Origin: a virus
Reading direction: 5' to 3' (one strand)
DNA: 64,000 nt
Virus record (IMG/VR): IMGVR_UViG_3300036985_006490
Span: 62,001 to 126,000 of that record
Shown: positions 781 through 62,991 of the stretch, piece by piece
Layout of the letters: each line of letters opens with the position of its first letter
How positions within the stretch are numbered: position 1 is the first letter of the stretch
The notes under the pieces: model-generated
The model's input: only the letters and a program-made list of their open reading frames with translations
The model's database searches: none
What the model was told of the DNA's origin: nothing
Program-made: the position numbers and the translations under genes

Positions 781-806
781 AAAAAAAAGGTCGTTAAGAC
801 CTTTTT
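781..806 (-). terminator. Rho-independent terminator after the 805-1665 methyltransferase
   Basis: Minus-strand hairpin AAAAGGTC / GACCTTTT with a 5-base loop, directly followed by a T run. It overlaps the stop codon of the methyltransferase gene and separates that operon from the next gene downstream. Confidence 0.8.
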
Positions 807-1665
807 AAGTTTTAGATTCAAAATCAAGAACTCCTTGTTTTTTTTGATTAATAAAATGTTGTACTCTTTTAGTCGCCACTTCACAATAATTCGAACTGAG
901 TTCGATTCCAATCCATCTGCGTCCTAAAATTTCTGCAGAAACCAAACTTGTTCCGCTTCCAGCGAAAGGATCCATAACAATATCATTTTTATACGTAAGA
1001 ATTTTTATCGCTTTAGTCGGGATATCCATTGAAAAAGTTGCCTTTGTTTGTTGTCTTGTATCCGCAAAATATTCCCATTGACCATACACCAAACTCATGA
1101 AGTCTTTCTTATCTTCATCTTGATACATGGTTTTCTTCTTTATTGTTCCGTCTTCTTGTTCAACATCAACAACTTCCCCAACCCACTGAGGTTCCCCTTT
1201 AACTTTCTTAATCCTATCTTTCTTATAAGCAAGGATTACACATTCTTTTGGATTGTAAATGTAAGGTGAAGATGGAGACATCCAAGAACCCCAAGCGGTG
1301 GTCTTGCTTCTGTGTGGTGCATTCTCATCAAGGTCAACAAGTCCATAAAATTTGAACCCAACCTTTTTCATAACAGACCAAAATTCTGACATGAACAATA
1401 CTCTACCACCTCTATCTTGGACGTTAATTTCATATGGAATATTGACCGCAATCCTCCCATCATCTTTAAGAACACGAAATGATTCACCCACCCATTCTTC
1501 TGTAAATTTCCAATATTCCTCCATCGATTGGTTATCGTCATGGTTATCGTAGTCAATACCGACATTATAAGGTGGAGAGGTAACAATTAAATCAATTATT
1601 GACTCAGGTAATTTACCCATCTCAACAACACAATCGCCATTTATAATCCTATTTGTTTCTAACAT
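805..1665 (-). CDS. DNA methyltransferase, beta-class amino-methyltransferase
   Basis: 286 residues. Catalytic motif IV TSPPYN lies near residue 30 and the SAM-binding motif DPFAGSG near residue 232, the order of beta-class N4-cytosine/N6-adenine methyltransferases. SPPY is more usual for N4-cytosine and DPPY for N6-adenine enzymes, so the methylated base is uncertain. It probably modifies phage DNA against host restriction. It overlaps the upstream nucleotidyltransferase gene by 7 bases and is the last gene before a terminator. It is one of three DNA methyltransferases in this window (with those at 12169 and 24963), and no restriction partner is adjacent to this one. Confidence 0.9.
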
Positions 1666-12168: not shown

Positions 12169-13008
12169 TTAATAATTCAATATTAACAGCTCTTCTCCCA
12201 TATTTTGTTTTATACCCTTCTTAGCCGCGGCTGCCTTCGCAAATTCTTTTTTCTCCCATCGGAAACTATCTTCAGGAAACCATTTGTGTAACAACTCAAA
12301 ATCATAATAAGATAAACTAAATTTTCCTTGAACCTTGTTCAACACATTTGCCAATCTCTCATGGTCTTCCCTGTCGAAGTCGTGATTACTATAATAGTTT
12401 TCAGTCTTCCAATAAGGAGGATCCATATAGATGTAGGTTGTCGGAGAATCATACTTCTCAATCACATCTTGAAAGTCTAAATTTTCAACATGAGTGATTT
12501 TTGTGAAATGTTCAACCCAATTAGGTTTACTCAATTTATCTCTAAAAGCAAGATACTTTGACCTATACTTTCCTTTAAGGTCTATAAAGCTTGATGTCTC
12601 AGGTTTACTTCCACTAAATACTTGTGATAACACATAGACATACTTTGCTGCTGTAACATAGTCAGGATATTCAACCTTAAATCCCTCTCCAAATATTTCA
12701 CTTTGGAAACTTACAAATTTTTCTTTCAGCTCTTGTGAAGCATTATCCACACCGACTTGTTGGACTTCAATTTCATCCATTACACGTTGAAGTTCGGATG
12801 GGTTTTGAACACACTTGAATAAATTGTAATTTAATGGATTAAAGTCATTGTAAACGACTTTCTTAAGGTTTGGATACTTCTCCAAGTCCATATTAAAAAA
12901 ACACCAGAACATACCTGAAAATGGTTCTACGTACGTTTCCATGTCTGTGGGATAAAATGGAACAATCCATTTACCTATTTTTGATTTACCTCCAATATAA
13001 CTTATCAT
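12169..13008 (-). CDS. Dam-type N6-adenine DNA methyltransferase (D12 class)
   Basis: 279 residues. N-terminal IGGKSKIGKWI and SAM-binding motif YVEPFSGM (about residues 25-32), then catalytic DPPYW near residue 196. This order is the D12/alpha class to which Dam belongs, methylating adenine in short sites such as GATC. The target site cannot be read from sequence. The protein is about the length of Dam. Downstream of the start region it stands alone with no nuclease partner, so protection of phage DNA or regulation is likely. Confidence 0.9.
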   Translation of the reverse strand: MISYIGGKSKIGKWIVPFYPTDMETYVEPFSGMFWCFFNMDLEKYPNLKKVVYNDFNPLNYNLFKCVQNPSELQRVMDEIEVQQVGVDNASQELKEKFVSFQSEIFGEGFKVEYPDYVTAAKYVYVLSQVFSGSKPETSSFIDLKGKYRSKYLAFRDKLSKPNWVEHFTKITHVENLDFQDVIEKYDSPTTYIYMDPPYWKTENYYSNHDFDREDHERLANVLNKVQGKFSLSYYDFELLHKWFPEDSFRWEKKEFAKAAAAKKGIKQNMGEELLILNY

Positions 13009-24962: not shown

Positions 24963-25826
24963 TTATACTTTACTTATCCATGAATTGCCTAACTTGACAT
25001 AATCATAGTTTAACTCAAATCCAACAAAATCACACCCTAAAGATTTTGCCACAACTAATTCACTACCCGAACCAGCAAATGGAACTATAACTTTAGGCTT
25101 AGAATCTTTTGGAATTGACGATAAAAATAATTTACGAGTAAGTTCAAATGGTTTTTGTGTTGGATGTTTAAATGTATTGTGGTCTTCATGCCCCCCCTTT
25201 TCTTTTGGATGAAATGCCTCTTCACAATCGTGGCAATAAAACCATCTTTCAACGCTACCAGAACCTCCAGCTAAAGCAGGTACTTTGAAAACGTCTCTCG
25301 GAAGAGCCCCATTCTCATTTGCATTGTATATTGTCTCTTTTTCTCCATCTCCAAATCTTCCTTTGGTTGCTTTGCGAACTTTCCCCGCAGCATTTTTTAA
25401 AAATGAATCAGTGTATTCTTCTCTTACATCATCAAGATTGAAATTTTTCTTATTACCCTTCCAAACATGAATAATTGATTCATGACTTCTCTGCCAGTCT
25501 TTTAGGCTAGGAACTGTTTTATTAGTATAATGCCACACTAACCACTTTTTGTTGTTATGAGGAATTTCAACAAATATATGAGCAAGAATTTCACTGAATC
25601 CGTAAATAAACATTGACCCTCCCTCAGTTAGAGTTCTATAACCTTCACTAATCCACTCTTGAGACCATTTAAAATAATCCCCCATATCTTGTTTATCAGA
25701 GTCATTACCAAAATCCTTACCGATGTTGTATGGAGGGTCTGCAACAATGGTATGAATACTATTATTAGGAATTTTTTTCATCCCCTCAATACAATCAATA
25801 CGTAATATTTTATTTTCCAAGTTCAT
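24963..25826 (-). CDS. DNA methyltransferase of a phage restriction-modification pair
   Basis: 287 residues from the ATG at 25826 (MNLENKILRIDC); a longer frame is open but its first 20 residues overlap the nuclease gene. Catalytic DPPYN near residue 31, HPTQKP near 228, and SAM motif PFAGSG near 256: beta-class, probably N6-adenine. Between them lies an inserted zinc-type cluster, WFYCHDCEEAFHPKEKGGHEDH. Overlap of 17 bases with a TaqI-family endonuclease gene makes a complete type II pair; the cognate site is not readable. Followed by a strong terminator. Confidence 0.9.
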   Translation of the reverse strand: MNLENKILRIDCIEGMKKIPNNSIHTIVADPPYNIGKDFGNDSDKQDMGDYFKWSQEWISEGYRTLTEGGSMFIYGFSEILAHIFVEIPHNNKKWLVWHYTNKTVPSLKDWQRSHESIIHVWKGNKKNFNLDDVREEYTDSFLKNAAGKVRKATKGRFGDGEKETIYNANENGALPRDVFKVPALAGGSGSVERWFYCHDCEEAFHPKEKGGHEDHNTFKHPTQKPFELTRKLFLSSIPKDSKPKVIVPFAGSGSELVVAKSLGCDFVGFELNYDYVKLGNSWISKV

Positions 25827-26544
25827 CGAATACTTTTTTATTAAATATAATAAAACCATTGTTAAGAATATCAAGACGTGTGTCATTTCTGAAATCTAAG
25901 TAAGGTTTTCTGTAATCCCCATTTTTCTTTTTTGGATTTTTAATCACACCCTGTGGAGGAACCCAATAAGTAATCGGGACTACACCTACAGATTCCTCTC
26001 GTTTCATTTTAATAATATCTTTTCTGTTCGAGAATTTCTTGACACCATAGTCACAAATATCCATGACTCTAACGTCTACTCCCTGTCTATCAAGTTCGGG
26101 GTTAATGATAATTTTATTATTGGGATAATATTCTTCACAAACAAACCCAAATTGTATCTGAGTCAAAATTGAAGTCCAAGTTCTATATTGTCTTGCAATC
26201 CACCCTTCTTTGAATGCAAGATATGCTGAATCTGCATACTCCGAGAAATTATTTCTTTTATTATTGTAAGCAATCAAATTACTTTCAATTTTGGATATTA
26301 CCCAAAATATGAATTCTTCGAAAGGTAGAAAACTTCTTTCAACCCAATATTTTTCATAAATAAATTCTAAAATTTGAATATTTGGGGGTAAATCTTCCTC
26401 AACAGATTTGTTAGCTGCAAATTTTTTTCTATAATAATCCAAATTTATTGTTTCCAAAAACTGAATAAATTCTGTGATTGATTTTTGTGTCATTGTTTTA
26501 GTTTTTTTATAAGAATCCGCAATTTTTTTTTGTCTATCCATCAT
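25810..26544 (-). CDS. TaqI-family type II restriction endonuclease
   Basis: 244 residues. The pattern YRKKF...VEEDLPP...LEFIYEKYWVE...FEEF followed by WIARQYRTWTSILTQIQFGFVCEE matches the TaqI restriction-endonuclease family as I recall it. Downstream, ELDRQGVDVRVMD then DIIKMKRE fit the catalytic D...(E/Q)xK strands. It would cut DNA at the site its adjacent methyltransferase protects; TaqI itself cuts TCGA but this specificity is unknown. Starts with ATGA overlap at the gp46 stop, so it is translated with gp46. MM at the start leaves two adjacent start choices. Confidence 0.7.
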   Translation of the reverse strand: MMDRQKKIADSYKKTKTMTQKSITEFIQFLETINLDYYRKKFAANKSVEEDLPPNIQILEFIYEKYWVERSFLPFEEFIFWVISKIESNLIAYNNKRNNFSEYADSAYLAFKEGWIARQYRTWTSILTQIQFGFVCEEYYPNNKIIINPELDRQGVDVRVMDICDYGVKKFSNRKDIIKMKREESVGVVPITYWVPPQGVIKNPKKKNGDYRKPYLDFRNDTRLDILNNGFIIFNKKVFDELGK

Positions 26545-56491: not shown

Positions 56492-56986
56492 TTAGATGAG
56501 TTTGTTATTTTCTTTTGAAACAACATCTTCATGATTAATAAACATAATAACACTCCTACGAGTTCCCTTGGTGATTTTTTTCACCTCATGGTCATACTTG
56601 GATTCGAATACATACGGTACTCCAATTTCTTTTTCAATAAAATAATATGGGTCATAAACAATATAGTCTCCACCCTCATAATTATCATTCAAATGAAATC
56701 CTGTAACCAAGTATCTATTTTTACCATAAACATAATTATTATCAGTATGGCGTAGAAAATAGTCATTTTCTTTATACCTCATAATCACAAATTTTTGGTC
56801 ATAAGAATTTAAACTCAAATTTAATTTTGATTCGACCCATTTCAATAATTTTATTTTAACAGGAATTACTAAGTCAGATTCAATTATTTTAGCGTCATAA
56901 CTCCTATCCCGTTTGACAAAATATTCTAAATCATGATAAAGCGTTTCTATCGATTCGATTTCATCTTGAGTAATTAATTTCATCAT
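56492..56986 (-). CDS. 2OG-Fe(II) oxygenase (prolyl-hydroxylase type)
   Basis: 164 residues. Iron ligands HTD (H80, D82) and DHEVKK (H133) with the 2-oxoglutarate-binding Arg in KGTRRSVIMFI (R143 or R144). The VTGFHLNDNYEGGDYIVY core is standard. Prolyl- or asparaginyl-type hydroxylases of this size act on peptides; a Pro-rich fibre tract would be an obvious target but this is inference. Confidence 0.85.
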   Translation of the reverse strand: MMKLITQDEIESIETLYHDLEYFVKRDRSYDAKIIESDLVIPVKIKLLKWVESKLNLSLNSYDQKFVIMRYKENDYFLRHTDNNYVYGKNRYLVTGFHLNDNYEGGDYIVYDPYYFIEKEIGVPYVFESKYDHEVKKITKGTRRSVIMFINHEDVVSKENNKLI

Positions 56987-56994
56987 TATACCGA

Positions 56995-57441
56995 TTATAT
57001 TAAACTATTTTTTTTTATTGAAAGTGGATTATTATGCATAAACCCAACTAAGGTATATCTGTCTCCAATACAATCATTTACTTTATGTTGTTCATCACCA
57101 GAAAAATAAATCATATCTCCCGTTTTAGGTTTGTATTCTTTGCAACCAAAAATTACTTCACCTCCAATAAAATCCTCATTTAAAAAAATTATAAATGACC
57201 ATGGGTTAACATGTCCATGAAATGTCTCTATCTGTTTAATAGTTTCATTAACCATTTGAACTCGAATTTTTTTGAAAAAAAAATTTGAAAATTTTTGTAT
57301 AGTTAAATCTCTATTTATTAAATCTATATAGTAAAATTTATATACATTATCTCCATAATAATTCATTTTTTCATTATTAAACATATCAATGAAATATAAA
57401 ACTTCTTTTTCTTCCAAGAATGATTTCACATATTTTATCAT
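56995..57441 (-). CDS. 2OG-Fe(II) oxygenase-fold protein, HxH variant
   Basis: 148 residues from the ATG at 57441 (MIKYVKSFLEEKE); the longer frame overlaps the upstream gene. Core WSFIIFLNEDFIGGEVIFG with HGH (H75, H77) where HxD is usual, GDEQHKV (H119) and GDRYTLVGF (R128). The HxH variant is known in some families of this fold, so activity is plausible. Paralogous to the genes on either side. Confidence 0.7.
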   Translation of the reverse strand: MIKYVKSFLEEKEVLYFIDMFNNEKMNYYGDNVYKFYYIDLINRDLTIQKFSNFFFKKIRVQMVNETIKQIETFHGHVNPWSFIIFLNEDFIGGEVIFGCKEYKPKTGDMIYFSGDEQHKVNDCIGDRYTLVGFMHNNPLSIKKNSLI

Positions 57442-57451
57442 AAGTTTATGT

Positions 57452-57961
57452 CTAAAATGGTTTATTAACGCAAATTTGACCAAAATGTGAGAATAGTAAA
57501 TAGCATTCTCCCTCCTCGATTTTACTTACTTGTTGGTTTGTAGATCTTCCATGAATTACTCCATACCCTGTAGTCATCTTGTTACGAACATTATTGAAAT
57601 AAAAATTTCCTCCTATAAAATCTTCATTTAAAAAAACAACAACAGTGAACGTCGTATGTCTATATAAACTTTTTTGATTACTATAATTAAAAGTATGGGT
57701 TGGTAATCTATATCCTTTTGATAATTTTATAATTCTGTTTTCAATTATTTCATTTACTGAAATCTTTTTGTTTTCATAAAGAATATTTTTCAATTTTGTA
57801 TCTAACCAATTGTATTTAATAAATTTCTGATAGTATTTGAAATCTTGGTCATACAGTTGCCATTCAGATTCGTTTGAAAGGAGTAAACTACATTCTTCCT
57901 TTGAAAAAAATTGATACATTTTATATGATATTATTGGTATATTTAACTTGGTTTTCCACAT
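57452..57961 (-). CDS. Degenerate 2OG-Fe(II) oxygenase-fold protein
   Basis: 169 residues. Keeps the structural core FTVVVFLNEDFIGGNFYFNN, almost identical in pattern to the neighbour at 56995, but has HTF for HxD (H89 only), Gln where the distal His should be (TNQQVSKIEEG), and Cys in place of the 2-oxoglutarate Arg. Iron binding is therefore unlikely; possibly a structural partner or pseudoenzyme of the neighbour. Overlaps the next gene upstream by 41 bases. Confidence 0.7.
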   Translation of the reverse strand: MWKTKLNIPIISYKMYQFFSKEECSLLLSNESEWQLYDQDFKYYQKFIKYNWLDTKLKNILYENKKISVNEIIENRIIKLSKGYRLPTHTFNYSNQKSLYRHTTFTVVVFLNEDFIGGNFYFNNVRNKMTTGYGVIHGRSTNQQVSKIEEGECYLLFSHFGQICVNKPF

Positions 57962-58520
57962 CTAAACAAAAATTTCCAGCATACACGATTCTATCTAATT
58001 CAGATTTTGGGGTAGGGATTGCCGTATGTCTTATATTTGCCGGAAATATAAAAAAATCTCCTTCTTGTGGTAAAAATTTATGTCTTATTTTGTCTTCAGT
58101 TTCGAAAACAATATGCCCCTCATCTCCTTTAATATCTTTTGGTGTTTGTAAGTAATATGTGAACGTAAAGTCCGTCGTAATATTTGACCGACCAGGTGGA
58201 TGAACTAAAAGATGTTGGTGTAACCATTCCATATCAAACCCTTTGGTCTGAGTATATATCCAAAAATGTTCCGCATAATTAATAAACTTTCTATTTGAGA
58301 TTTCTTCTACGTATTTTTTAATTTTTTTATTAATTTGTAGAAAACATTTAGTGTTTATTTCCATCCAAATTGAATTCTCTTTTGTTTGAGTTTTGGTATA
58401 GATTACTGATGAATCATTTAACTTTGCATATTTAAGACAATCATCTTTTATATTCATAAATTTATCATCATGACCTTTATGAATAGTAAATGTCGTAGAC
58501 AACTTCAATTCTTGAATCAT
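57921..58520 (-). CDS. 2OG-Fe(II) oxygenase, PF13759-type with HxH
   Basis: 199 residues. LHQHLLVHPPGRS (H101, H103), a YYLQTPKDIKGDEGHIVFE strand pair, PQEGDFFIFPANIRHTAI (H165) and DRIVYAGNF (R177). This is the putative-oxygenase family in which HxH replaces HxD and FP..IRH precedes the distal His. Fourth member of the oxygenase run. The product and substrate are unknown. Confidence 0.75.
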   Translation of the reverse strand: MIQELKLSTTFTIHKGHDDKFMNIKDDCLKYAKLNDSSVIYTKTQTKENSIWMEINTKCFLQINKKIKKYVEEISNRKFINYAEHFWIYTQTKGFDMEWLHQHLLVHPPGRSNITTDFTFTYYLQTPKDIKGDEGHIVFETEDKIRHKFLPQEGDFFIFPANIRHTAIPTPKSELDRIVYAGNFCLDVENQVKYTNNII

Positions 58521-58954
58521 ATGATTTTTTTATCAATTTTTTCGTATCTCTGATAGTTACTGAGTATTTCCTCTCCCTTTTTAATATCTCTTATTGATTT
58601 CATACTATTTTTATCAATATTACTTTTAGTTTCATAATAACCACTGTTCACAAAATAATATGGGTTAGTATAAATCCAATGACAACTGTTAGTTAATTTT
58701 ACATAAATGCTAGTGTCTTTTGGGAAATCTGAGGAAAATAAAAATAAATCTTGAATGTGTTGACGTAATTCCTCATTCAATTCACTTAATTGGTCTTGAG
58801 TTATGGGGTAGAATCCTGTTTTACCCTCCCACAATTGAAACAAAAGTGTGTCTTTAACGATATCTTTTATCGCAAAAACTCCTATTCCTGAAATATTACT
58901 TGGTTTCAACTTTACAAAAACACAATTTTTTATGTAATTGTACGCATCCATCAT
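58517..58954 (-). CDS. SET-domain methyltransferase-like protein
   Basis: 145 residues. SGIGVFAIKDI (residues 22-32), SNSCHWIYTNPYYFVNSG with SNID (residues 90-114, a variant of the NHSxxPN knot) and SIRDIKKGEEILSNY (residues 120-134) are the SET core motifs in order. SET enzymes methylate lysine; a phage version may act on virion or host protein. It lacks pre- and post-SET Cys clusters. Overlaps neighbours by 4 bases on both sides. Confidence 0.75.
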   Translation of the reverse strand: MMDAYNYIKNCVFVKLKPSNISGIGVFAIKDIVKDTLLFQLWEGKTGFYPITQDQLSELNEELRQHIQDLFLFSSDFPKDTSIYVKLTNSCHWIYTNPYYFVNSGYYETKSNIDKNSMKSIRDIKKGEEILSNYQRYEKIDKKII

Positions 58955-59103
58955 AAATGTTTATTCATAAACAATTCAAAAAATTTACCAATTACAGTTT
59001 CGACTCTTTCTTTTTCTGTAGTTGATAATTGTTCGGTTGTTCTGTTTTTAATTTGATTTAAGGACTTTTTTTTGTATAACTGAGGGTGTTTAGATATATC
59101 CAT
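58951..59103 (-). CDS. Small basic helical protein
   Basis: 50 residues, MDISKHPQLYKKKSLNQIKN then a Glu/Thr helix ending FFELFMNKHL. Its stop overlaps the SET gene start as ATGA, and it lies 10 bases downstream of the Hint-protein stop. No family recognised; coding is supported by coupling. Confidence 0.6.
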   Translation of the reverse strand: MDISKHPQLYKKKSLNQIKNRTTEQLSTTEKERVETVIGKFFELFMNKHL

Positions 59104-59113
59104 GTTTGTAAAT

Positions 59114-61846
59114 TTATTTGTTATGTACTAATACTCCATTCGCATAAAAATTTTGATTGTCAGCAACTGAAATAATATGCGTTTGTGTGTTTATTCTTTC
59201 CAATTCTGTTATAGAAACAATCTCCAAGATTTCTCTGTTAGGTTTGGTTAATTTGTCCCCAATATTTATTTGTGTTACTTCCAAAGGAATATCATATCTT
59301 TCATTAGTCCACTTTGGTTTATAAGACGCAAGTTTTAATCCATTAACATAAAATGGGTGGTCAAATGTTGAAATGATTTCTGTATCATCAGAAAGTATGT
59401 ATTTAACTAAATCATCATGTATGGGTGAGTTTACTTCTGTAACTTCTCTTTCCTCCACAACATTTATAATTTCATTGTAAGACAATACTAAATCCCCCAC
59501 GTTAATCTCTTCAATATTTTTTTCTATTCCATTTCCCATCAAAACTTTAGTACCGCTTATAAAACAAGCTTTATTGTGGGTTAAAATACCATTAGCAAAA
59601 AAGTTATGATTATTGGTTACTTCGAAAATATAAGTTTGTGTTGGTTTGAATTCTAGTTCTTCAATTTTAGTAATTCTTGTATTCAATCCGTCAATTAAGT
59701 TAACATTATCTCCTACTTCTATTTGTGTGACATTATTATTAAAATTGTACCTATCGTTGGTCAATAAAGGTCTATATGACGACAAATTAAACCCATTTAT
59801 AAAAAATGGGTGGTCAAAAGTACAAACAATTTCAGTACCATTTTCAAAAGAATACTTAACCAAATCATCATGAATCGGTGTAATTATATTTGTTACGGTT
59901 TGATTTTCTTTTAATCCTGTTTCTAAATTAACTGAAACTACTATATCACCATTCGCAATATCTTCAATTGGTTTTGTAGTTCCGTCTGCCATTTCAATCA
60001 TTGTACCTTTTACAAAACATGCTCGATTATGTACCAAAACGTCATTAGCAAAATAATTATGATTAATTTCAACTTCAGACAAATTGTATACTTTAGTCTC
60101 TTCATTAACTACGGTAATTTTATCCAAAATAACATTTTTGTTCATTAATTTCACAGAATCTCCGATTTCAATTTTTTGTACTGGTTCACCTATTGTGTAT
60201 AATGTATTTGATAATAAATTGTCATAAGATGACCAACCCTTACCATTAACGAAGATTGGGTGGTCAGTTGTCGATTTGAGAGTACCCCCATTATCAAACT
60301 CATAAACTACAATTTTATCTATTTTTTTGGAAAATACATTTAATACTTTACTAACCTTTGTCTCATTACTATTGAAGTTGAATGACAATATAGAATCTCC
60401 AATTACAACATCTTCAATATTTTTTGTTGTACCATCTTCCATTTGAATTTTGGTACCTGCAACAAAACAAGGAGAGTTATATGATACAATACTATTGAAC
60501 GCCGTAGAACCATTTATTATATACGTATCGGTATCTTCAACATCAAGTTCAACGAATGCCAACCCAGTCTCGGGTGAAACATAGAAGTTTAATTCGTCAA
60601 CTTTAATCAAGTTACCTTCCAAATCATATACGTAATCAGTTACTGCGTTTATTTCAGAAATAAATTTAATACTACTTTTATCAGATATAGAATCATAAAT
60701 CAAATATTTTTTGTTAATACCTGAAAATAGCGAATCATTATCTATCACCATTTCCATCATTGCCCCATATTTGAGTTGTTTAACATCTTTGAAGACAACC
60801 TCGGAATTACTAATATAAGATCCATCAGGAAACTCACCTCCATCATAACTCCAAGTTAAAGCATTCAAATCAGTTTCAGCTTGAGGGGATCCATTAACTT
60901 TATAAGACTTTATGGTTTCACCAACTTGAATTTCGGACACTTCTTTCCAAGTTTCATCATTCATCAAAACTTCATGGGTAGACAAAATTCCACCCGAATC
61001 GTTTTTGATAAAATTTGTTGTGAATTCATAGTAATGATGGTCTTTAACTTTATTACCTTCCAATTCTATCGATTCAGGTAATTCAAATATAGAACTGATT
61101 TTATAAGAATGCAGTATCATTATATCCAAATTTCCCCCATAAACTATCCCAAAAACTCTTATTGATGTAATATGATTATCCTCATCTACACTTGATGGGT
61201 GAATGTGATATTGTTCAATTAATTTATTTTCATCAGAATTTTCAGATAAGAAATCATTCCAACAATTTTCAGATGTTCCTCCAGTTAAATTAATTTTGAA
61301 AAAATCAATTGGATTAAAAGATTCATATACATCCTTTATAGTTGCATCTGGTATGTTACCTGTATTTATTTCTTTTGTCAATGTATCATAAGTACCTACT
61401 GATGAAGAATGGTAATATCCAACACAATTATCAGTTATAAAGCTATCGGTGAACAAATTATAAACATTCAATCTATTTTTACAATACACACTGTCAAATA
61501 TTGCGGTTTCGTCGTAGGCTAATCTTAACACAAATTTATCGGCAGCATCCGCAACTGATGTTGGATAAATTGAATTAATATTCTCGTCATGTAAGTTGAT
61601 GACGATTGATGGTAGATTATTATTAACTTCTTCAACAAGTCTATTAACAAAATCTATGTGTAAAAATGGTTTATAGATAATGTCTAAAGTTGTGATGTTG
61701 TTTGACGATAATACTGATAAAAATCCACTAAAGTCAAAATTCACCAATTCCTGGTCGATAAACCCAGTATCCGTATTTAACTCTAATAATCTTAAATCAC
61801 CATTTGAGTCTTTTACAAAGTCTGCCGAAAATAACGTTCCTTTCAT
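59114..61846 (-). CDS. Protein with three tandem Hint (intein-like) domains
   Basis: 910 residues. Residues 1-280 hold an unfamiliar domain beginning MKGTLFSADF with LLELNTDTGF (resembling an ATP-grasp-type E-x-N site, low confidence). Residues 286-450 look like a degenerate Hint unit with Ser for Cys. Three intact units follow back-to-back: 460-609, 610-760, 761-910. Each starts CF(V/I).GT, has (S/C)T.DHP near position 67-72 and ends in VHN or THN; the residue after Asn is Arg or Lys, not Cys/Ser/Thr. No extein separates them. Expected chemistry is self-cleavage at both ends rather than clean splicing. A GATATTTAA element lies upstream. Confidence 0.85.
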   Translation of the reverse strand: MKGTLFSADFVKDSNGDLRLLELNTDTGFIDQELVNFDFSGFLSVLSSNNITTLDIIYKPFLHIDFVNRLVEEVNNNLPSIVINLHDENINSIYPTSVADAADKFVLRLAYDETAIFDSVYCKNRLNVYNLFTDSFITDNCVGYYHSSSVGTYDTLTKEINTGNIPDATIKDVYESFNPIDFFKINLTGGTSENCWNDFLSENSDENKLIEQYHIHPSSVDEDNHITSIRVFGIVYGGNLDIMILHSYKISSIFELPESIELEGNKVKDHHYYEFTTNFIKNDSGGILSTHEVLMNDETWKEVSEIQVGETIKSYKVNGSPQAETDLNALTWSYDGGEFPDGSYISNSEVVFKDVKQLKYGAMMEMVIDNDSLFSGINKKYLIYDSISDKSSIKFISEINAVTDYVYDLEGNLIKVDELNFYVSPETGLAFVELDVEDTDTYIINGSTAFNSIVSYNSPCFVAGTKIQMEDGTTKNIEDVVIGDSILSFNFNSNETKVSKVLNVFSKKIDKIVVYEFDNGGTLKSTTDHPIFVNGKGWSSYDNLLSNTLYTIGEPVQKIEIGDSVKLMNKNVILDKITVVNEETKVYNLSEVEINHNYFANDVLVHNRACFVKGTMIEMADGTTKPIEDIANGDIVVSVNLETGLKENQTVTNIITPIHDDLVKYSFENGTEIVCTFDHPFFINGFNLSSYRPLLTNDRYNFNNNVTQIEVGDNVNLIDGLNTRITKIEELEFKPTQTYIFEVTNNHNFFANGILTHNKACFISGTKVLMGNGIEKNIEEINVGDLVLSYNEIINVVEEREVTEVNSPIHDDLVKYILSDDTEIISTFDHPFYVNGLKLASYKPKWTNERYDIPLEVTQINIGDKLTKPNREILEIVSITELERINTQTHIISVADNQNFYANGVLVHNK

Positions 61847-61866
61847 AATATGTTGTTAGTTATATA

Positions 61867-61875
61867 TTAAATATC
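61867..61875 (-). promoter_or_regulatory. Weak GATATTTAA element before the Hint gene
   Basis: Minus-strand GATATTTAATATATA, 20 bases from the ATG at 61846. Related to the GATATTTATT elements but with a changed final base, so low confidence. Confidence 0.25.
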
Positions 61876-61939
61876 TTGTAGAGGTTTAATTTTTTTTATA
61901 TTTCTATCCCTTGTATTCAACCTCAACCAAATTAAAATT

Positions 61940-62482
61940 TTACAAAAGGGTTTTAGGACTTGAACTAGTTGTTCTTGAGATACAGATATGCGTAAGTTCT
62001 AAACTTTGTGATAAACTTAGTTGAAAATCAATTATATGGTATACTTCAGAAAAATTAATTTTATTGAATTGAACTCTTTTATTATGCTCCAAAGTATTCG
62101 GATATAGATTAATAATTCTTACTTTTTTATCAAGATTCGAATTAATTAACTCGAGTGAAGATTTTTGTAAACTTAATTTATTTTCTCTATAATCATCAAA
62201 ACTACCATTATTGAAGATGGCCGAAGTTAGAACGTTAAAAATAGTTTTATCCTGATATTTCCACAAGTCAAAAAGTTCTTCAAATATTTTTTGTTGGTAA
62301 ATCGGATGATATGTATTATTAATAAACACATCCAAATCTAAAACTTCATTTAGAATGTCTGTGTATCGTTTAAGGTCATACCCATTACTTCTTGAAAAAC
62401 CAAAAACTTCATGGTTTTTTTTCAAAAAATCATAAAGACCTCTACCCAAAGAATCACTGTGTCCTGTTATTCCTATCTTCAT
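61940..62482 (-). CDS. Short-chain dehydrogenase/reductase-like protein
   Basis: 180 residues. Nucleotide-binding GITGHSDSLGRGLYDF at the N-terminus (variant of TGxxxGxG), VFINNTYHP (NNA-like), LTSAIFN (catalytic Ser) and YRENKLSLQ (YxxxK). Shorter than typical SDR proteins (about 250), lacking part of the C-terminal substrate lobe. Would reduce or epimerise a sugar or peptide carbonyl. Overlaps the oxygenase gene by 4 bases. Confidence 0.7.
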   Translation of the reverse strand: MKIGITGHSDSLGRGLYDFLKKNHEVFGFSRSNGYDLKRYTDILNEVLDLDVFINNTYHPIYQQKIFEELFDLWKYQDKTIFNVLTSAIFNNGSFDDYRENKLSLQKSSLELINSNLDKKVRIINLYPNTLEHNKRVQFNKINFSEVYHIIDFQLSLSQSLELTHICISRTTSSSPKTLL

Positions 62483-62991
62483 ATTAAACTAACACTACTT
62501 TTCATATTTTCCTTATATAAAAATATTATTAATGAATACCGAATACCACTTTCAATTTTTGTAACCTCATGTTCTCTTGTATTTTTGAAAGAATAAATTG
62601 TACCAGCTATTTTAGGAATAATTTGTGTAGGTTTATATAATACAAAATCACCTCCCACATAGTCATCATTCAAACAAACTCCAACATTCAATGTTTGATT
62701 AGGATAGTATATGTCACTATGTCTTTCAAATTCATTTCCGGCTATGTATTTGTGTAAATGTATTACTTCAAAGGGTTTGGTTATTTCGATATTTTGGTCT
62801 ATTAACAAATACTCAGTAATTTTATCAAAAATCCATTTTACCGACTCATTTCGATAAATATTATAATAAGTATACGATATTTTTTCCCTCGGTCTTTCAA
62901 CGGTTTTACTATTCACATCTCTGTGAGTACCCTCTATTTCTAAGGTTAAATTTATAATCTTATCACACTCTTCTTTAGAAAAACAAACCAT
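62479..62991 (-). CDS. 2OG-Fe(II) oxygenase (prolyl-hydroxylase type)
   Basis: 170 residues. RHSDIYYP (H91, D93), TREHEVTKIESG (H141) and RYSLIIFLY (R151) complete the metal and 2-oxoglutarate sites; VGVCLNDDYVGGDFVLYKP is the core strand pair. Same type as 56492 but a different sequence. Fifth oxygenase-fold gene in the cluster, next to the carbamoyltransferase. Confidence 0.85.
   Translation of the reverse strand: MVCFSKEECDKIINLTLEIEGTHRDVNSKTVERPREKISYTYYNIYRNESVKWIFDKITEYLLIDQNIEITKPFEVIHLHKYIAGNEFERHSDIYYPNQTLNVGVCLNDDYVGGDFVLYKPTQIIPKIAGTIYSFKNTREHEVTKIESGIRYSLIIFLYKENMKSSVSLI

What the first reader, a model, noticed from the sequence alone, without database searches (positions are those of the whole stretch)
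59114..61846. Three back-to-back Hint domains, plus a possible dead fourth, in one phage protein
Residues 460-609, 610-760 and 761-910 each carry an N-terminal Cys with an (A/K/S)GT block, a (T/F)DHP block and a C-terminal (V/T)HN. They directly abut, with only an Ala between them and no extein. A fourth unit (286-450) looks degenerate with Ser for Cys. Residue +1 after each Asn is Arg or Lys, so normal splicing is unlikely; staged self-cleavage releasing 150-residue pieces or cross-linking of the upstream domain is possible. Tandem Hint arrays in phage virion-type proteins are, to my knowledge, undescribed.
Basis: partly seen in the sequence, partly recalled or inferred. Interest (0 to 1): 0.85.

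Follow-up and report, generated by a model that had tools for sequence, protein, structure and literature searches.

The report
Phage ligase with tandem self-cleaving domains
A large, uncultivated virus of bacteria encodes a protein that joins an ATP-powered ligase-like domain to a row of three intact (plus one altered) self-cutting 'Hint' domains, next to genes for oxygenase enzymes; the arrangement is conserved across dozens of aquatic viruses and looks like an undescribed self-processing enzyme system.

Summary
Residues 460-609, 610-760 and 761-910 are three intact Hint domains (Pfam hits in three stretches; model matches Tetrahymena BIL2, TM to target 0.85-0.89). The 'dead' fourth (U0) is also a Hint: it lacks Cys1 but is under purifying selection and keeps its terminal Asn. 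It is no one-off: 77 distinct viral proteins share N-domain - U0 - one to three Hints. All 160 downstream units begin with Cys; 128 end HN and 25 SD; Asn-to-Cys spacing is 1-11 residues. Units cluster largely by array position, so the array is old. Corrections: the spacer is two residues (Arg/Lys-Ala); nothing supports a virion protein. The N-domain model matches circularly permuted ATP-grasp ligases (YgiC/YjfC, homoglutathione synthetase; Foldseek E about 1e-5), with D9, E22-x-N24 and K171 invariant. The gene leads a conserved cassette: a 2OG-Fe(II) oxygenase lies within three genes downstream in 64 of 66 loci. Best reading: a self-processing phage ligase whose tandem A-type BIL-like domains cut the chain into ligase-U0 plus free Hints, possibly with amine attachment. 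The array, the ligase fusion and the cassette appear undescribed; the chemistry is inferred, not shown.

The parts
59114..61846 (-). whole gene, 910 aa: ATP-grasp-like N-domain, altered Hint U0, intact Hints U1-U3
60992..61846 (-). N-domain, residues 1-285, resembling circularly permuted ATP-grasp ligases; D9, E22, N24, K171 invariant in 31 sequences
60476..60991 (-). U0, residues 286-457: altered Hint without Cys1 or block-B His, terminal Asn kept
60026..60469 (-). U1, intact Hint, Cys460 to Asn607; followed by Arg-Ala
59573..60019 (-). U2, intact Hint, Cys610 to Asn758; followed by Lys-Ala
59120..59566 (-). U3, intact Hint, Cys761 to Asn909; followed by Lys910 and stop
58517..58954 (-). SET-domain protein, next gene downstream
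   Evidence: Pfam SET 9.6e-07; only SET gene found in the record
57921..58520 (-). 2OG-Fe(II) oxygenase
57452..57961 (-). 2OG-Fe(II) oxygenase relative (no Pfam hit; found with the family's own profile)
56995..57483 (-). 2OG-Fe(II) oxygenase relative
56492..56986 (-). 2OG-Fe(II) oxygenase
62479..62991 (-). 2OG-Fe(II) oxygenase upstream of the array gene
61940..62482 (-). SDR-like gene directly upstream, conserved there in several relatives (cluster c16); SDR assignment by eye

Best explanation
A phage-encoded self-processing ligase. SHOWN by sequence or modelling: an N-domain resembling circularly permuted, glutathione-synthetase/YgiC-type ATP-grasp ligases is fused to an altered Hint (U0) and a tandem array of intact A-type BIL-like Hints that keep the residues for both self-cleavage reactions. 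INFERRED from known Hint chemistry: each intact Hint activates its N-terminal junction by an N-S acyl shift at Cys1, helped by the block-B His, and its C-terminal junction by Asn (or Asp) cyclisation. The chain is cut stepwise into ligase-U0 plus separate units of about 148 residues; the one- or two-residue spacers are freed or transferred. INFERRED, weaker: the thioester at the U0-U1 junction is where an amine is attached to ligase-U0, by aminolysis as in BIL2 (the +1 Lys is a candidate) or by the ATP-grasp domain, and the co-encoded 2OG oxygenases and SET protein modify the same product or partner.
For: Cys1 and block-B His invariant in 142 aligned units; all 160 units in 77 proteins begin with Cys, 153 end HN or SD. 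Fold and sequence closest to BIL2 and C. thermocellum BIL. A-type BILs cleave or splice without a +1 nucleophile (PMC5874633); BIL2 forms a Lys isopeptide (PMC8616854). U1 +1 is Lys or Arg in 69 of 76. N-domain: top 14 PDB folds are YgiC, YjfC and (homo)glutathione synthetases, E from 1.1e-5; D9, E22, N24, K171 invariant. All domains under purifying selection. Oxygenase within three genes downstream in 64 of 66 loci, same strand. No protein found through the N-domain lacked a downstream Hint.
Against: No activity shown. TM scores of the N-domain matches are low (0.3-0.4) and the profile-to-PDB hits are not significant. Pro at -1 before U1 (here and in 23 of 81 U1 cases counted) is usually poor for N-terminal cleavage (general knowledge). 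The last unit keeps HN although only one Lys follows, so C-terminal cleavage there would release almost nothing.
Confidence: 0.5

Rival explanations
1. Hedgehog-like conjugation: only the U0-U1 junction matters. The thioester at Cys460 hands the whole ligase-U0 to an external nucleophile; further Hints are spares or regulators.
For: U1 is the only unit present in every member and keeps Cys1, block-B His and HN in 68 of 68; 12 members have a single Hint.
Against: U2 and U3 also keep Cys1 and block-B His in all aligned cases and form position-specific clades, so they are not mere spares. No sterol-recognition-like region follows.
Confidence: 0.2
2. True protein splicing: each Hint excises itself and joins the short spacers onto the ligase-U0, adding a short basic tail.
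For: Both splice ends keep their residues; 12 inner junctions of relatives have Ser or Thr at +1; A-type BILs sometimes splice without it.
Against: In this protein +1 is Arg or Lys, there is no real C-extein, and no Hint-free form of the protein was found.
Confidence: 0.12
3. Non-catalytic: the Hint fold serves as a beta-rich binding or spacer module.
For: U0 shows that a Hint can be kept without Cys1 and block-B His.
Against: Catalytic residues are the most conserved positions of the intact units.
Confidence: 0.12
4. Toxin-release Hint (PT-HINT) or an assembly artefact of repeats.
For: PT-HINT hits above cut-off; DNA repeats.
Against: No further domain follows the array in the 77 proteins, whose tails after the last unit are short. 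Arrays recur in many independent contigs with diverged units.
Confidence: 0.02

Closest known systems
A-type bacterial intein-like (BIL) domains: BIL2 of Tetrahymena BUBL1 (PDB 6tmm, 6y75) and C. thermocellum BIL (2lwy)
   Same: Hint fold, Cys1, block-B His, terminal His-Asn, no Cys/Ser/Thr at +1 in this protein. BIL2 likewise sits in a chain with other functional domains and uses Lys.
   Different: Here two to four Hints abut with 1-11 residue spacers, at the C-terminus, behind an ATP-grasp-like domain, in viruses. BUBL Hints are separated by ubiquitin-like domains.
Circularly permuted ATP-grasp ligases: E. coli YgiC/YjfC, (homo)glutathione synthetase
   Same: Fold match and order of elements; D and E-x-N near the N-terminal hairpin.
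   Different: Only about 285 residues; no conserved Gly-rich loop seen in the alignment; fused to Hints.
Inteins of phage DNA-metabolism proteins (e.g. Vibrio phage helicase inteins)
   Same: Same fold; found by the same searches.
   Different: Those interrupt an enzyme; these form the C-terminal half of the protein and no Hint-free allele was found.
Hint proteins of phage NCTB (LT598654.1)
   Same: Hints in phage proteins and a separate small 'intein domain protein'.
   Different: Single, diverged Hints in tail-region proteins; no match to the N-domain profile.

Membership tests
A-type BIL domain | Hint fold with Cys1 and block-B His | tested here: met
A-type BIL domain | Conserved C-terminal His-Asn | tested here: met
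   three of three units here; 128 of 160 units in the family, 25 more end SD
A-type BIL domain | No Cys/Ser/Thr nucleophile at +1 | tested here: met
   Arg, Lys, Lys in this protein; some relatives have Ser or Thr
A-type BIL domain | Self-cleavage or splicing activity | not testable with these tools
   needs expressed protein
Intein | Real C-extein with Cys/Ser/Thr at +1 | tested here: not met
   Arg/Lys at +1; last unit followed by one residue
Intein | Homing endonuclease or intein-free alleles of the host gene | tested here: not met
   units of about 150 aa leave no room; every protein found via the N-domain carries at least one Hint
Hedgehog Hog domain | Sterol-recognition region after the Hint | tested here: not met
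   protein ends one residue after the last Hint
Pretoxin-Hint (polymorphic toxin) | C-terminal toxin domain after the Hint | tested here: not met
   none in this protein; only short tails in relatives
Glutathione-synthetase-type ATP-grasp | Circularly permuted ATP-grasp fold | tested here: met
   Foldseek E 1.1e-5, probability 1.00, but TM only 0.3-0.4
Glutathione-synthetase-type ATP-grasp | Metal-binding Asp and E-x-N, ATP-binding Lys | tested here: inconclusive
   D9, E22, N24, K171 invariant; their equivalence to the known residues is by motif and order, not by superposition
Glutathione-synthetase-type ATP-grasp | Conserved glycine-rich ATP loop | tested here: not met
   none conserved in A3 by inspection; so ATP-grasp-like, not filed as a GSH-synthetase family member

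The most novel reading that the evidence does not exclude
A viral assembly system in which a ligase, a self-cleaving tandem Hint scaffold and a bank of oxygenases together build or attach a modified peptide or amine: enzyme, scaffold and release device on one chain, with array length changed by recombination.
Probability: 0.15. Interest if true: 0.92.

Novelty: new variant of a known kind. Interest (0 to 1): 0.74.

Why it matters
Tandem, abutting Hint domains fused to a ligase-like domain would be a natural system for serial protein self-cleavage and possibly ATP-independent conjugation. It would extend intein-driven conjugation, known from Tetrahymena BUBL, to phages; give a functional lead for part of the many 2OG-Fe(II) oxygenases of aquatic phages; and supply naturally tandem Hints for protein engineering. 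It is directly testable with one recombinant protein.

Tried and rejected
Virion-protein reading: not supported (N-domain fold, gene context). Chance or artefact: rejected by 77 relatives. N-domain in Pfam: none. De-permuted N-domain profile against the PDB: no hit. N-domain against BFVD: nothing significant. N-domain plus U0 in 50,697 phage records: no match. Bacterial genomes: three matches through the Hint part only, without the N-domain. LR756508.1 looked like a tandem-Hint case; its first two Hints lie 13 residues apart in a 1387-aa ORF with Ser or Thr at +1, so they are likely true inteins. The whole genome was not available as a file, so I read the rest of the record as overlapping pieces, each searched separately. 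Literature: no paper held uses the tandem-Hint terms I tried; Iyer et al. 2009 on amidoligases is not held. A first regular-expression count of Hints failed and was replaced by profile searches.

Full report
OBSERVATION. The ORF 59114-61846 (minus strand, 910 aa) is intact. It lies in a 162,812-base virus record; the window is bases 62001-126000 of it. Pfam Hint-type models hit in three stretches. The DNA repeats with 450-453 bp spacing and only 61-71% identity between copies over a 95-nt block, so the copies are well diverged.

FOLD. AlphaFold2 on a 38-sequence alignment gives mean pLDDT 77.6, pTM 0.48; the arrangement of the domains relative to each other is therefore not reliable, the single domains are. 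The best Foldseek matches are BIL2 of Tetrahymena BUBL1 (E 3.5e-11, TM to target 0.85-0.89) and the C. thermocellum BIL, then mini-inteins and Hedgehog. Sequence search agrees.

FOURTH UNIT. A profile built only from intact units finds U0 at about 37-48 bits over nearly its whole length in many relatives; in the window protein itself it reaches only about 14 bits over 31 residues. It lacks Cys1 (Gly286 here) and the block-B His. Its terminal Asn is invariant. dN/dS is about 0.04-0.11 in U0 and 0.04-0.28 over all domains where it could be computed; dS is high or saturated for several pairs, so the values are rough. U0 is altered but maintained, not decaying.

FAMILY. IMG/VR scans gave relatives from many contigs. 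In 77 distinct proteins there are 1 (12), 2 (47) or 3 (18) Hints after U0; all 160 begin with Cys; 128 end HN and 25 SD; seven are truncated or of another Hint type; Asn-to-Cys spacing counts 1-11 residues. In the 142 aligned units Cys1 and the block-B His are invariant. The +1 residue of U1 is Lys or Arg in 69 of 76. The tree groups units mostly by array position across viruses, with exceptions such as the single Hints of L113 and L117, which group with U2. L007 has lost a unit through a U2/U3 fusion (read; tree). Uneven dS between domains of close relatives points to module exchange. N-domain plus U0 has no match in 50,697 phage records; the bacterial-genome scan gave three Hint-only matches. 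These scans use short conserved patterns and are not exhaustive.

N-DOMAIN. No Pfam family. Ten columns are invariant in 31 diverse sequences, among them D9, E22, N24 and K171. The profile's weak PDB hits are mostly ATP-grasp enzymes at their E-x-N region (E 0.03-1.2). The domain model (pTM 0.73) finds YgiC, YjfC, homoglutathione synthetase and other eukaryotic-type glutathione synthetases as its top 14 hits (E from 1.1e-5). Glutathione synthetase of this type is the known gene-permutation case (reference in PMC2845819), which would explain why E-x-N lies at the N-terminus. In the known ATP-grasp template the Lys, Asp and E-x-N follow in the other order (PMC4431377). TM scores are low (0.3-0.4) and a de-permuted profile found nothing, so I treat the assignment as likely, not proven.

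CONTEXT. In 64 of 66 loci a 2OG-Fe(II) oxygenase lies within three genes downstream; the next gene is an oxygenase (46) or SET protein (17) in 63 of 68, always on the same strand; upstream genes are rarely oxygenases. In this record all five 2OG genes and the only SET gene found lie within 6.5 kb (window 56492-62991). Radical SAM, weak GDSL-lipase-like and carbamoyltransferase genes are near. Several contigs overlap in origin, so the locus counts are of distinct proteins, not of independent lineages.

MECHANISM. Shown: residues and predicted folds. Inferred from known Hint chemistry: N-S acyl shift at each Cys1, Asn/Asp cyclisation at each end, stepwise cutting. A-type BILs do this without a +1 nucleophile (PMC5874633), and BIL2 can form a Lys isopeptide (PMC8616854). 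Weaker inference: amine attachment at the U0-U1 junction, by aminolysis or by the ATP-grasp domain, with the oxygenases and SET protein acting on the same product. A structural relative of this ATP-grasp group works in a pathway with a 2OG oxygenase in E-64 biosynthesis, and YgiC/YjfC are peptide-spermidine ligases (PMC12568646).

VERDICT. Real, conserved and, as far as the held literature shows, undescribed. The components are known kinds; the tandem array, its fusion to a ligase-like domain and the oxygenase cassette are new together: a new variant of a known kind.

Noticed in passing
window 59567-60019 (U2) and whole protein: The Hints score best of all Pfam models against AXH (ataxin-1/HBP1 module; 128.8 bits over three stretches), and U2 alone matches ataxin-1 AXH chains at E about 1e-5. 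This suggests AXH and Hint are related; the paper search gave no paper naming both AXH and intein.
   Followed up: partly
L092 10724-11221: A separate 166-aa gene that is almost only a Hint (Cys1, DHP, HN-K), about 2.4 kb downstream of that virus's two-Hint protein; it groups with the U2/U3 units.
   Followed up: partly
L088, L089, L091, L093, L166: In these the last unit is a different Hint type that keeps Cys1 and a block-B-like His but lacks the terminal HN (ends ...EHNFIVEDFxVSGLGDN...), suggesting module exchange.
   Followed up: no
L007 8001-10283: Its second Hint starts like U2 and continues like U3 of the window protein: unit loss by in-frame recombination between repeats.
   Followed up: partly
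L197 (LT598654.1, phage NCTB): Three neighbouring Hint-bearing genes in the tail-fibre region: a tail protein, a small 'intein domain protein' and a 1304-aa protein with a C-terminal Hint.
   Followed up: partly
L082, record bases 161132-162811: A frame with long collagen-like GTSGTSGSSG repeats at the record's end; a possible target for hydroxylating oxygenases, untested.
   Followed up: no
window 805-1665 and 24963-25886: Two separate genes match the same DNA methyltransferase family phrog_67; a third methyltransferase (phrog_56) is at 12169-13008.
   Followed up: no
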